From the NCBI GenBank assembly GCA_021323945.1, contig JAJPKA010000002.1, positions 62,001 through 126,000 on the forward strand: DNA of 64,000 nucleotides. The letters run 5' to 3'. The stretch is from Pseudomonadota bacterium (GTDB lineage: Bacteria > Desulfobacterota > Binatia > Binatales > Binataceae). A program made the position numbers and the translations under genes. The notes under the pieces were generated by a model. The model ran no database searches. It worked only from the letters and a program-made list of their open reading frames with translations, and had not been told where the DNA came from. Shown here in pieces: positions 15,592 through 43,549 of the stretch; position 1 is the stretch's first letter; each line of letters starts with the position of its first letter.

Positions 15592-15951
15592 TTACCGATT
15601 TCCGCCGAAAAGTTCTCGTAGTTGTTCGCGATTGAAACCAGCGATCACTCTGCGGCCTGCAATGATTAACGGGCGCTTGATGAGGTTGGGTTCCTGCGCC
15701 ATGAGCTTTAACGCCTGCTCATGGCTCAATTTCTTCCCTTGCAACTTCATGTTCTTAAAGGCAGGACTCTTGGGATTGATATACTCACGCGCGTCTGCCC
15801 CTTTAAAGAGCTCTTCGAGTTCCGCCAGGGAAAGGGGCTGTTTAGCGTAATCACGCTCCTCCAGCTCGACTCCCAATTCGTTACGCAGGAAACCTCTTGC
15901 GTTGCGACAAGTAGTTCAGGTGGATTTCCACAGAAAGCGCGCTTTCTTCAT
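15592..15951 (-). CDS. ArsC/Spx-family thiol oxidoreductase with in-frame UGA at the catalytic Cys (candidate selenoprotein)
   Basis: Read from ATG 15951 the gene encodes a full-length 119-residue ArsC-family protein (COG1393 type) if the UGA at 15918-15916 (codon 12) is decoded: FLWKST[U]TTCRNARGFL. Family members have Cys at this exact place (CxxC in Spx-like proteins, Cys12 in E. coli ArsC), so the UGA replaces the nucleophile and leaves a UxxC motif. The rest is intact, with NLIKRPLIIAGRRVIAGFNREQL near the end. Without decoding, only a fragment from TTG 15876 could be made. A SECIS-like hairpin follows the UGA. A nonsense-mutated pseudogene (TGC or TGT to TGA) is the alternative. No Shine-Dalgarno is visible before the ATG. 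No selA, selB, selC or selD is in the window. Substrate could be arsenate or a protein thiol. Confidence 0.7.
15878..15907 (-). promoter_or_regulatory. candidate bacterial SECIS element
   Basis: Within the arsC-like reading frame, downstream of the UGA, the RNA can form a stem-loop. The outer part pairs UCG with CGA, then a 2x2 internal loop, then ACGCA with UGCGU, one A/C mismatch, GA with UC, and a GGUU apical loop at 15894-15891. The loop starts 22 nt after the UGA and has G in its first two positions. From general knowledge, bacterial SECIS hairpins have such a G and place their loop about 16-37 nt from the UGA. Found by hand folding; energy not computed. Confidence 0.55.
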
Positions 15952-16060: not shown

Positions 16061-16744
16061 CTACTCTATGCTCGTATCGGTTAACCAGGACTTCTTTGGC
16101 GAGCTTACTTGGGAATCACTATTGTAACTGTAACCGCCATCTTTGGCCGAGCCTTGCGATGACTTTCCCGAAGGGCTCTTTCTTACGAATCCAGTACCGG
16201 GGTCCATTGGACGGACAGCGCTGGAATTGTCCACGCTCCCGGCACCTGCTGCCGGCACCACATCCGCAGAGGTAGTTAGCTTTGAAGAGGAAGCCCCGAT
16301 GCCATTCGACGTATCGTTCGACGCCTGCCACGCGCCGGTTTGCGCACCGGGTGACTGTATCGGAGTGCTCGGACCGCTAAAATAGATTGGCTTCTTCCCG
16401 GTTATCATATCAGGCGTGAGAACATAGTCACCGCCAAGCGAACTTCGCCAAATGCTGTTAGCCACCTGGGTATTGCCACCTGTCAGCGCGTAGCCCGCGG
16501 CGCCGCCCAACCCTCCGAGAATGCCATAAGCAAGCTTCACCGGGACGTAGATCAGATTACCTACGACTGCGCCGGCACCGAGCCCAACTCCCTTCCAATT
16601 GACACCACCATCGGGAGGCTGGACCACCTGTGACTGATTCGCTGTTGATGAATTATTCAGGTCCTGCGCCGCGGCACTATTACCCACCAGCAAAGTAGCC
16701 AGCAGCGCACCCATTAGCCAAGGTCTTTTGTTATTCGCGCTCAT
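16061..16744 (-). CDS. secreted Gly/Ser-rich protein of unknown function
   Basis: A signal peptide (about residues 1-26, ending NSAAAQ) is followed by a mature protein with a Gly-rich, weakly hydrophobic stretch (GVGLGAGAVVGNLIYVPVKLAYGILGGLGGAAGYALTGG split over about 50-95) that could form a membrane hairpin, then SLGGDYVLTPDMITGKKPIYF, then a low-complexity Ser/Gly/Pro tail. GGAGG lies 4 bases before ATG 16744; GTG 16765 is an alternative start. I have the impression that the central segment recurs in deltaproteobacteria-like genomes, but no characterised family comes to mind. Probably periplasmic or envelope-attached. Confidence 0.65.
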   Translation of the reverse strand: MSANNKRPWLMGALLATLLVGNSAAAQDLNNSSTANQSQVVQPPDGGVNWKGVGLGAGAVVGNLIYVPVKLAYGILGGLGGAAGYALTGGNTQVANSIWRSSLGGDYVLTPDMITGKKPIYFSGPSTPIQSPGAQTGAWQASNDTSNGIGASSSKLTTSADVVPAAGAGSVDNSSAVRPMDPGTGFVRKSPSGKSSQGSAKDGGYSYNSDSQVSSPKKSWLTDTSIE

Positions 16745-16829
16745 CATGCCTCCTGCATCCACCACCGTTTTGCGCTCCGCGAGCGCGCCTTCAAAACCCC
16801 TTTATTCTGTCAAACACCGGTAGCTCGCG

Positions 16830-17558
16830 CTACTCGACCCGTACCACCATGTCGCGTGGTAGCAGTTGGATCAGATGGTCAAAAGCTCGCTCGACGTATT
16901 CACGATCCTTCGATTCGAGTGTAAGCTTCACCCGATATTCCGGGTCACCGAGACGCGGATAGGATCCGAGCAGCAATGCCGGGTATGTCTCGAGACAAGC
17001 CTTCAAGTATTCGGCGATAGTGCCTTCGCCTGCACTGGTATAGATCGTCCGAATGTAATACGGATCGGTCGCAAACCTGCCAAGTAAGGCTGACAACTTC
17101 GCCTCAAAGATTTGCGGGATCCCCGGTAGAATATAAACGTTTTCCAGTTGCACTGTTGGAAATCGCAGGTCACCGGCCGCATTTAACGTTGCACCCTCGG
17201 GCACCTCGGCCATCTTCATACCCGTGGCCAGACGCTCCGTGAAATAATCTCGAATCATTCGCTCGAGTTCAGGATGGACCACCAGACGTCGCCCAAACGC
17301 CCGGGCAACGGCCTCCATTGTTATATCGTCGTGAGTCGGACCCACGCCGCCCGAGGTGATCACGAACTCAAATCGGCGAGCGCAGTAATTGACCTCCTCA
17401 GCAACGGGTTCAAGTTCATCCGGCACGACTGCGATGCGCTTGAGGGCAACGCCCACCTTGCGCAATTCGCGTGCGGCAAAATAAGAATTGGAATCATGCA
17501 CCTTACCGGAAAGAATCTCGTTTCCGACCACCACCATCCCGCAATCACGTTCCTGCAT
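16830..17558 (-). CDS. CinA-like competence/damage-inducible (MoCF-domain) protein
   Basis: Molybdopterin-binding-fold (MoCF_biosynth) protein. The N-terminal VVVGNEILSGKVHDSNSYF (9-27) and the TSGGVGPTHDDITMEA loop (about 67-82) are the hallmark of the CinA N-terminal domain; ILPGIPQIFEAKL is also conserved. At 242 aa it lacks the C-terminal nicotinamide-nucleotide amidase domain of full CinA (about 410 aa) and is like the short single-domain versions. The link to competence is historical; the activity of this short type is not established. It lies downstream of the sigma-factor gene on the same strand. Confidence 0.85.
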   Translation of the reverse strand: MQERDCGMVVVGNEILSGKVHDSNSYFAARELRKVGVALKRIAVVPDELEPVAEEVNYCARRFEFVITSGGVGPTHDDITMEAVARAFGRRLVVHPELERMIRDYFTERLATGMKMAEVPEGATLNAAGDLRFPTVQLENVYILPGIPQIFEAKLSALLGRFATDPYYIRTIYTSAGEGTIAEYLKACLETYPALLLGSYPRLGDPEYRVKLTLESKDREYVERAFDHLIQLLPRDMVVRVE

Positions 17559-17666: not shown

Positions 17667-18800
17667 CTATCTCGACGCCTGCTCAATATCGGCAGCTTGC
17701 TGCATTAGAAAATCCTTTAGTCGTCGCTTAAGACGTGATTCAATCTGGCGTACACGCTCGCGACTGATACCAAAGCGGGCGCCGACCTCCTGCAGCGTCG
17801 GAGGATCTTCGGACAGCAAGCGGCTTCGAAAGATCTCGAGCTCCTTGTCTTTCAGCGTCGCGGCGAATTGCTCGACCTTGTCCCGGGCAAAATTCCGCCA
17901 TTCTTCCTGCGCAGTTGCTTCCTCAGGGTTCCATTCTGTATCGGGGATTACATCGCCCAACCGGGTATCTTCCTCGGGACCCGCCGGCGCATCAAGCGAC
18001 ACTTCACTTTGCGCCATCCGTTCCTGCATTTCACGGACTTCGCTTTCCTTTACCCCCATCCGCTGGGCGAGGAGTTTAGGCTGCGGGGTAAACCCTTCCG
18101 CTTCGAGGCGTTCACTTTCTTTACGTAGGTTGAAGAAAAGCTTGCGCTGGGCTTGGGTCGTACCAATCTTGACGAGTCGCCAGTTGTTGATCAGATAGCG
18201 ATAAATGTAGGCGCGCACCCACCAAACGGCATACGACGGGAACCGAATTCCGCGGTACGGATCAAAGTTCTTAACGGCCTCCATGAGGCCCACGTTGCCT
18301 TCTTGTATTAGATCCAACAGGTTGCGCGATGCTCGTGCGAACTCGTTCGCAATCTTTACCACCAAGCGAAGATTGGCAGTGACCAGGCGATACGCATCTT
18401 CAGGATTGCGGTACTTGTAGTAGCGTCGCGCAATCTCGGCCTCTTGCTCGCGGCTAAGCACCGGGAACCGCCTGAGCTCGGCCAGATAGCGGCTAAGCGG
18501 GTCGACCGGAACAAGCTGCCCGCCGACAGTTGGATCGCCGCTCGCCCGACTCTCATCGTCCGATTCGCCTATCGGAGGCTCAGCTGTTGCATCGAAAGGC
18601 GTCAGAGACGCGTCAACCAGCTCTTCAACAAGCTCCCCGTCGTGTTCCGGTTCGACCGTCGCCAAGTCATCACTTTCGACGATCTCCGGCTCTAGAAGCC
18701 GTTCGTGTGCAGGTATGGGCTCCGGCTCGGCTTGGCGCGGAGGGCTTGAGATCCTTTTGCGAGCCTTTTTGCGCGGAGCCTGAACTGATTTGCGAGGCAC
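17667..18800 (-). CDS. rpoH: RpoH-type (sigma-32-like) sigma factor with long acidic N-terminus
   Basis: Alternative sigma factor directing RNA polymerase. Region 1.2/2.1 starts at PLSRYLAELRRFPVLS (101-116), region 2.3/2.4 includes DLIQEGNVGLMEAVKNFDP and FPSYAVWWVRAYI (187-199), the RpoH box QAQRKLFFNLR is at 217-226, and region 4.2 (TLQEVGARFGISRERVRQIE) is at 335-354. The RpoH box separates this from RpoD and points to a heat-shock type factor. An extra N-terminal segment of about 95 residues, basic then strongly acidic, is unusual since RpoH is normally about 285 aa; it may be regulatory. Start is GTG with AAGG about 9 bases upstream. Confidence 0.88.
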   Translation of the reverse strand: MPRKSVQAPRKKARKRISSPPRQAEPEPIPAHERLLEPEIVESDDLATVEPEHDGELVEELVDASLTPFDATAEPPIGESDDESRASGDPTVGGQLVPVDPLSRYLAELRRFPVLSREQEAEIARRYYKYRNPEDAYRLVTANLRLVVKIANEFARASRNLLDLIQEGNVGLMEAVKNFDPYRGIRFPSYAVWWVRAYIYRYLINNWRLVKIGTTQAQRKLFFNLRKESERLEAEGFTPQPKLLAQRMGVKESEVREMQERMAQSEVSLDAPAGPEEDTRLGDVIPDTEWNPEEATAQEEWRNFARDKVEQFAATLKDKELEIFRSRLLSEDPPTLQEVGARFGISRERVRQIESRLKRRLKDFLMQQAADIEQASR

Positions 18801-40941: not shown

Positions 40942-41066
40942 GTCTCCCTCCTGCTGGGTGCATGGTCCGGCTTGGCAGCTGTCGACTGCAGGTTTGACAG
41001 TCCTCCTGCGCGGCGGTTAGTTTGGATCGTGCCCCTTCTGTTTTTCTTTTCTGGACAAGGCTCGCG

Positions 41067-43549
<2,483 letters not shown>

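What the first reader, a model, noticed from the sequence alone, without database searches (positions are those of the whole stretch)
15592..15951. Candidate selenocysteine in an ArsC/Spx-like oxidoreductase
The only reading that gives a complete, uninterrupted 119-residue ArsC-family protein passes a UGA at codon 12, exactly the position of the catalytic Cys (Cys12 in E. coli ArsC, first Cys of CxxC in Spx-like proteins), leaving UxxC. The codons on both sides match the family. From memory, arsenate reductase appears among selenoprotein families reported from marine metagenomes, so this may be a rarely annotated member. Automatic annotation would truncate it to a fragment starting at TTG 15876 and lose the active site.
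Basis: partly seen in the sequence, partly recalled or inferred. Interest (0 to 1): 0.88.

Follow-up and report, generated by a model that had tools for sequence, protein, structure and literature searches.

The report
Hidden selenium protein in uncultured bacteria
A small redox protein of an uncultured bacterium, which standard gene annotation would cut short, very probably carries the rare amino acid selenocysteine at its active site, as do most of its close relatives; it belongs to a kind of selenium protein that was already known, but to a branch that I did not find described.

Summary
Confirmed. On the minus strand, 15951..15592 is a 119-codon ArsC-superfamily gene with UGA at codon 12 (15918-15916), giving UxxC. 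Of 41 Binataceae genomes, 40 have it: 28 with UGA there, 12 with TGC/TGT. UGA also stands in 5 of 6 other class members and 18 of 20 distant loci; the other three have Cys. The genome has tRNA-Sec, selA, selB and a selD with its own in-frame UGA. A SECIS-type hairpin follows: a G[G/U] loop in 50 of 51 Sec and 1 of 15 Cys forms, kept by unusual synonymous codons. The window's own hairpin is the weakest of its family. The Sec reading holds; arsenate reduction is doubtful: UxxC, closest folds YffB/Spx, and a separate CxxS ArsC in the genome. Most likely a selenol/thiol-disulfide oxidoreductase. ArsC-like selenoproteins, UxxC ones included, are in print; this one scores 26.6 bits on the UxxC model (cut-off 85). 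New member of a known kind.

The parts
15592..15951 (-). Coding sequence, 119 residues with Sec12 (UxxC), stop TAA
15916..15918 (-). In-frame UGA, codon 12, read as selenocysteine
   Evidence: UGA in 28 and TGC/TGT in 12 of 40 Binataceae orthologues
15907..15909 (-). Codon 15, second Cys of UxxC
   Evidence: invariant in 34 of 34 aligned rows
15879..15906 (-). SECIS-type hairpin; core stem about 15902-15883: five pairs, an A.C mismatch, two pairs
   Evidence: MFE -7.8 kcal/mol in the 32-nt stretch; weak in the window's own copy, strong in most relatives
15891..15894 (-). Apical loop GGUU, beginning 21 nt after the UGA
   Evidence: bSECIS model read in PMC13188914 (passages)
15592..15876 (-). 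94-aa fragment (TTG start) that the standard code gives; lacks the active site
16061..16765 (-). Conserved neighbour of unknown function, upstream and co-directional
   Evidence: found in 28 of 31 Binataceae loci; no NCBIfam or Pfam hit at E <= 0.001
16830..17558 (-). Conserved neighbour, MoCF (CinA N-terminal-like) with FLAD1_M domain
   Evidence: 27 of 31 Binataceae loci
17667..18800 (-). Conserved neighbour, sigma-32 (RpoH) type sigma factor
   Evidence: 17 of 31 Binataceae loci, many cut short by the 4-kb flank or the contig end; NF005143 273 bits over cut-off 241, TIGR02392 279.5 under its cut-off 323

Best explanation
A genuine selenoprotein gene. UGA at codon 12 is decoded as selenocysteine by SelB and tRNA-Sec with the help of a hairpin whose G-U apical loop begins 21 nt downstream. 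The product is a thioredoxin-fold protein of the ArsC superfamily (YffB/Spx side) in which Sec12 and Cys15 sit at the start of the first helix as a UxxC pair. Most likely it reduces a disulfide or another oxidised substrate through a selenenyl-sulfide between U12 and C15, reset by thioredoxin or glutathione. Shown here: the frame, its conservation, the Sec/Cys exchange, the hairpin and its decay in Cys forms, the Sec machinery, the predicted fold. Inferred: that Sec is really inserted, the chemistry, the substrate. I give about 0.95 to Sec insertion, about 0.6 to a thiol/selenol oxidoreductase role, about 0.15 to an Spx-like regulator and about 0.1 to arsenate reduction; the confidence below is for the selenoprotein gene, not for the chemistry.
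For: Sec/Cys pairing: UGA in 28 and TGC/TGT in 12 of 40 Binataceae orthologues; UGA in 5 of 6 other class members and 18 of 20 distant loci, Cys in the other three. Machinery in the same genome: tRNA-Sec with anticodon tca, 74.2 bits (over the cut-off in 5 of 14 control genomes); selA 572 bits (1 of 14 controls); selB 360 bits (2 of 14); selD 379 bits with one in-frame UGA (2 of 14). Two genomes, 97% and 96% complete, that lack both SelB over cut-off and tRNA-Sec at 66 bits or more (G026, G032) have Cys. Hairpin: G[G/U] loop in 50 of 51 Sec and 1 of 15 Cys forms. Against synonymous recodings drawn from the window's codon usage, energy p <= 0.05 in 27 of 28 Binataceae Sec forms, 1 of 12 Cys forms, 5 of 5 class and 16 of 18 distant Sec forms, 0 of 3 other Cys forms. 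Codons in the hairpin of Binataceae Sec forms: Ser20 AGT in 17 of 17 that have Ser (12% usage), Gly20 GGT in 7 of 7 (23%), Arg19 AGA/AGG in 24 of 28 (12%); Cys forms have AGA at Arg19 in 1 of 12 (whose printed labels are one too high). The helix register moves (centres 51, 52, 53, 54) while the loop keeps G-U. No code change: 20 of 38 long ORFs of the window end in TGA. Fold: pLDDT 90.5; YffB Z 16.7, Spx Z 16.4.
Against: The window's own hairpin is the weakest of the Binataceae Sec forms: an A.C mismatch splits the stem, p 0.184 against synonymous recodings, 20 of 200 shuffles as stable, and in 59 nt another fold wins and 174 of 200 shuffles fold at least as well. Four of the 28 Sec genomes show no tRNA-Sec at 66 bits or more (G001, G005, G011, G033) and two no SelB over cut-off (G005, G040); I ascribe this to incomplete assemblies, untested. 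The AGT codon also stands in 3 of 4 Binataceae Cys forms that have Ser20, which may be a relic of the hairpin. Ten of 15 Cys forms also fold at -7.5 kcal/mol or lower, so the energy limit alone does not separate the two. Phylogenetically independent Sec/Cys pairs are too few for significance: 4 on supported branches, the hairpin going the same way in 3.3 on average, never the other way, median p 0.25. The synonymous null uses one genome's codon usage for all species. No expression data.
Confidence: 0.93

Rival explanations
1. Pseudogene: the UGA is a real stop and the rest is a relic or a short fragment translated from TTG 15876.
For: The standard code gives only the 94-aa fragment; the window's own hairpin is weak.
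Against: Same UGA in 28 of 40 family orthologues and in other phyla, alternating with Cys codons; low pN on both sides of the UGA; codons 1-11 conserved in sequence.
Confidence: 0.03
2. UGA is read as another amino acid because the organism uses an altered genetic code or a suppressor.
For: None beyond the open frame.
Against: 20 of 38 long ORFs in the window end in TGA; the other residue seen at this place in 15 relatives is Cys; tRNA-Sec, SelA, SelB and SelD are present.
Confidence: 0.01
3. The selenoprotein is a Spx-like redox regulator of RNA polymerase, its U12-C15 bond acting as a selenium-dependent switch; it lies near a sigma-32 gene.
For: Best sequence and Foldseek matches are Spx; UxxC matches Spx C10-C13; sigma-32 type gene upstream in 17 of 31 Binataceae loci; K61 stands at Spx R60 and R93 at Spx R92.
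Against: The pairwise alignment leaves Spx D51-G52 without a partner, and 33 of 34 family rows are two residues shorter there than the remaining row (Spx itself was not in that alignment); G52 is needed for binding the alpha subunit (PMC2801614, passages). YffB fits as well as Spx. TIGR01617 is just missed (73 against 75.05). The neighbours were found in none of 20 non-Binataceae loci, some with short upstream flanks.
Confidence: 0.15
4. It is a Sec-containing arsenate reductase.
For: ArsC superfamily by Pfam; E. coli ArsC is among the fold matches (1i9d Z 13.3).
Against: TIGR00014 49.4 bits against cut-off 106.05; UxxC/CxxC and not CxxS; separate CxxS ArsC in the genome; no arsenic gene among seven neighbouring proteins scanned.
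Confidence: 0.1

Closest known systems
Arsenate reductase-like UxxC selenoprotein (GOS 'Arsenate reductase 2', cd03032; NCBIfam NF041106 ArsC_rel_Se_1)
   Same: ArsC superfamily, Sec at the first position of UxxC (PMC2398784 and PMC13188914, passages)
   Different: NF041106 gives 26.6 bits against a cut-off of 85 for the window protein; of ten relatives tried, four are listed at E <= 1e-5, the best at 34.5 bits. The GOS samples are mostly marine. Whether the 42 GOS sequences include this branch could not be tested.
Arsenate reductase UxxS selenoprotein (Sargasso Sea; GOS ArsC 1)
   Same: ArsC superfamily, Sec at the same place (PMC1088965 and PMC2398784, passages)
   Different: Fourth residue of the motif is Ser there; a paralogue of that kind exists in some Binataceae
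YffB (PDB 1rw1)
   Same: Whole-length fold match, Z 16.7, 2.2 A over 113 residues
   Different: 22-23% identity; the motif of the solved protein was not examined
Spx (PDB 1z3e, 7f75)
   Same: Best sequence matches, CxxC at the UxxC place; Z 16.4 for 1z3e
   Different: No partner for Spx D51-G52; Sec instead of Cys

Membership tests
Bacterial selenoprotein | In-frame UGA aligned with a Cys of homologues | tested here: met
Bacterial selenoprotein | bSECIS in the relatives: 3-9 nt loop with G[G/U] in the first positions, 16-37 nt spacing, MFE <= -7.5 (model in PMC13188914, passages) | tested here: met
   Loop in 50 of 51 Sec and 1 of 15 Cys forms; loop and energy in 44 of 51 and 1 of 15 (stem length was not part of that test)
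Bacterial selenoprotein | bSECIS in the window's own gene, with an upper stem of 4-16 pairs | tested here: inconclusive
   GGUU, 21 nt, -7.8 kcal/mol in 32 nt, narrowly met; the stem is five pairs, a mismatch and two pairs, and a longer stretch folds otherwise
Bacterial selenoprotein | tRNA-Sec, SelA, SelB, SelD in the genome | tested here: met
Bacterial selenoprotein | Selenium present in the protein | not testable with these tools
   needs 75Se labelling or mass spectrometry
NF041106 ArsC_rel_Se_1 | Score over the curated cut-off of 85 bits | tested here: not met
   26.6 bits
TIGR01617 Spx/MgsR | Score over the curated cut-off of 75.05 bits | tested here: not met
   73 bits, narrowly; 2 of 10 relatives pass: L045 81.8, L117 87.7
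Spx regulator | Gly52 for binding the RNA polymerase alpha subunit (PMC2801614, passages) | tested here: not met
   no partner for D51-G52 in the alignment with 7f75_G, 6ghb_A and 1z3e_A
TIGR00014 arsenate reductase (glutaredoxin) | Score over the curated cut-off of 106.05 bits | tested here: not met
   49.4 bits
ArsC superfamily (PF03960) | Score over the gathering cut-off of 24 bits | tested here: met
   64.4 bits

The most novel reading that the evidence does not exclude
A separate, undescribed selenoprotein branch on the Spx/YffB side of the ArsC superfamily, found here chiefly in Binatota and Acidobacteria, in which a UxxC pair serves as a selenium-dependent redox sensor coupled to a neighbouring sigma-32 type stress factor. 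With little selenium, translation would stop after 11 residues, so the protein would report both redox state and selenium supply.
Probability: 0.1. Interest if true: 0.65.

Novelty: new member of a known kind. Interest (0 to 1): 0.42.

Why it matters
The standard code cuts this gene to a fragment without its active site, so a selenium-using redox protein carried by 40 of 41 genomes of an uncultured family is easily missed. The family is a good natural experiment: at least four changes between Sec and Cys forced by supported branches (nine on the best tree), with the hairpin usually following, in related genomes with and, apparently, without the Sec machinery. That makes it directly testable what Sec buys over Cys in one protein.

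Tried and rejected
A mechanical scan of the window for other read-through UGA frames gave no case that convinced me; none was tested by homology. Rfam on the window: no match at gathering score. The 20-kb stretch around tRNA-Sec (L067) was only listed for ORFs. Folding 59 nt after the UGA gave another fold and no support by shuffling; the local 32-nt fold and the comparative test are reported beside it. The fragment from TTG 15876 was rejected as the product. One pair (L022/L035) is misaligned by a deletion and is disregarded. Rows dropped: L050-L053, weak matches at E 1e-11 to 1e-9, read as canonical ArsC (HNPxC) and were left out of the Sec/Cys counts, as was L061, a fragment; weaker matches that I did not fetch are uncounted. 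The tree and hairpin counts use 66 rows (40 Binataceae, 6 class, 20 distant). The 31 Binataceae loci (L068-L098) were used for neighbours only, not counted again. The genome-contig scan used patterns from alignment A1, ten rows, five from Sec and five from Cys members, so it reaches near relatives only and is no census. The tRNA-Sec threshold of 66 bits is mine: below it the listed matches drop to 57 bits and less. Literature: the listings show no title on Binatota selenoproteins, but those (20 of 44 papers; 15 of 3,355; 12 of 112) are capped; the one paper with 'Binatota' and 'selenium' was seen only in the listing. Papers were seen as passages found by term: PMC1088965, PMC2398784, PMC1794560, PMC13188914, PMC9312934, PMC12013277, PMC2801614; in PMC5029168 the terms had no hit. 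That ArsC uses CxxS and that YffB is a thiol reductase-like protein is recalled, apart from the UxxS entries.

Full report
WHAT IS THERE. The gene lies on the minus strand, 15951 to 15592. Its translation is 119 residues with one internal stop, TGA at codon 12 (15918-15916), then TAA. Pfam ArsC covers residues 9-113 (64.4 bits). In this frame the standard code leaves one ORF of at least 80 aa, a 94-aa fragment from TTG 15876. The residues on both sides of the UGA match the family.

WHERE IT COMES FROM. The window is part of a 3.74-Mb assembly. The genome of the same genus, G001, has its copy on a contig of the same length (38,941) and place as a record titled Candidatus Binataceae bacterium; NCBI puts that family in Candidatus Binatota. 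The naming rests on this inference.

SEC OR CYS. Of 96 genomes searched, 75 gave some match; those of the weaker matches that I translated are canonical ArsC proteins. Of the 41 genomes of the family, 40 have the orthologue; the exception, G010, gave only a weak match. Codon 12 is TGA in 28 and TGC/TGT in 12. Among six further class members with strong matches, five have TGA and one TGC. Among 20 distant loci found by a pattern scan (16 Acidobacteria including Blastocatellia, 2 Syntrophaceae, 1 Chloroflexi, 1 Puniceicoccaceae by record title), 18 have TGA and 2 have Cys. C15 is invariant in the 34 rows aligned, out of 66. A tree of the 66 rows, with residue 12 masked, needs nine changes between Sec and Cys, four of them forced by well-supported branches; few columns, many open forks, some long branches.

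MACHINERY. The same genome has tRNA-Sec with anticodon tca (74.2 bits), selA (572 bits), selB (360 bits) and selD (379 bits), the last with an in-frame UGA of its own. Of the 14 control genomes, 5, 1, 2 and 2 pass the same cut-offs for tRNA-Sec, selA, selB and selD. In the family, SelB is over the cut-off in 37 of 41 genomes and tRNA-Sec at 66 bits or more in 34 of 41. G026 and G032, 97% and 96% complete, lack both and both have Cys. Against a simple picture: nine of 12 Cys genomes keep tRNA-Sec, four of 28 Sec genomes show none (G001, G005, G011, G033), and two show no SelB over the cut-off (G005, G040); of the Sec genomes only G005, 53% complete, lacks both.

THE HAIRPIN. In 21 of 28 Sec forms of the family the codons read GCA AGA AGT (or GGT) TTC TTG, which makes a stem of seven or eight pairs with a loop AGUU or GGUU. 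In most distant forms the pairing is shifted by one with a loop GUU or GGU; in another group, and in Syntrophaceae, by two and three. In 50 of 51 Sec forms the loop begins 21 to 23 nt after the UGA and holds G-U while the pairing partners move, which speaks for selection on the structure; the exception is L116. Codons there are unusual in the family's Sec forms: Ser20 is AGT in 17 of 17 with Ser, Gly20 GGT in 7 of 7, Arg19 AGA or AGG in 24 of 28; window usage is 12%, 23% and 12% (its printed labels are one too high). Cys forms: Arg19 AGA in 1 of 12, but Ser20 AGT in 3 of 4 with Ser. These are related sequences, so I give no probability. Against 1000 synonymous recodings each, by the window's codon usage, the hairpin is unusually stable (p <= 0.05) in 27 of 28 Binataceae Sec forms and 1 of 12 Cys forms, in 5 of 5 class and 16 of 18 distant Sec forms and 0 of 3 other Cys forms; one-sided Mann-Whitney within Binataceae p 1.9e-6, not corrected for kinship. 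A G[G/U] loop is found in 50 of 51 Sec and 1 of 15 Cys forms; with the energy limit of the published model, 44 of 51 and 1 of 15; the energy limit alone is met by 45 of 51 and 10 of 15. On four phylogenetically independent pairs the hairpin follows the state in 3.3 on average and never opposes it, too few for significance. The one Binataceae exception is the window's own copy: CTG instead of TTG puts an A.C mismatch into the stem. Its local fold still meets loop, spacing and energy (GGUU, 21 nt, -7.8 kcal/mol), but narrowly, and a longer stretch folds otherwise. So the case for Sec in this very gene rests on the comparison more than on its own hairpin.

SELECTION AND CODE. Against the nearest relative pN/pS is 0.057/0.69 before and 0.158/0.69 after the UGA. 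Twenty of 38 long ORFs in the window end in TGA, so the code is not changed.

WHAT IT DOES. The predicted fold (pLDDT 90.5) matches YffB, Spx and ArsC-related proteins over its whole length. Three lines speak against plain arsenate reduction: UxxC in place of CxxS, a score far under the arsenate reductase cut-off, and a separate CxxS ArsC in the genome. Against Spx speaks that Spx D51-G52 have no partner in the alignment; 33 of 34 family rows share the shorter loop, and G52 is needed to bind the alpha subunit (PMC2801614, passages). I therefore favour a small selenol/thiol-disulfide oxidoreductase; this is inference. The neighbours, a sigma-32 type factor, a MoCF/CinA-like protein and an unknown protein, are found in 17, 27 and 28 of 31 Binataceae loci but in none of 20 distant loci, some of them short, so they say little about an ancestral role.

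KNOWN OR NEW. ArsC selenoproteins with UxxS (Sargasso Sea) and with UxxC (GOS 'Arsenate reductase 2'; NF041106 in the 2026 review) are in print, and ArsC-like ones in Deltaproteobacteria. The window protein scores 26.6 bits on NF041106 (cut-off 85); of ten relatives the best scores 34.5. So it is a branch that this model does not catch, of a kind that is known. I could not place the GOS sequences.

Noticed in passing
L056, L057, L058, L059, L063 (Binataceae genomes G022, G033, G013, G031, G035): The canonical ArsC paralogue (HNPxUxxS) also has an in-frame UGA at the Cys place there; it is Cys in L054, L055, L060, L064, L065 and in the window's own genome (L062). In G035 this paralogue is Sec while the gene studied here is Cys.
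   Followed up: partly
L122 (G000:C1:158949-159872): SelD of the window's genome carries an in-frame UGA near its N-terminus, so it is itself a likely selenoprotein.
   Followed up: partly
window 16061-16765, minus strand: Protein of unknown function, no NCBIfam or Pfam hit, yet found upstream in 28 of 31 Binataceae loci.
   Followed up: no
genomes G012 and G035: G012 has two strong tRNA-Sec and two SelB matches, G035 two strong tRNA-Sec matches; duplication or assembly mixture.
   Followed up: no
window 40962-41801, plus strand: Read-through UGA frame with a 6-pair hairpin by a simple scan; no homology tested, probably chance.
   Followed up: no
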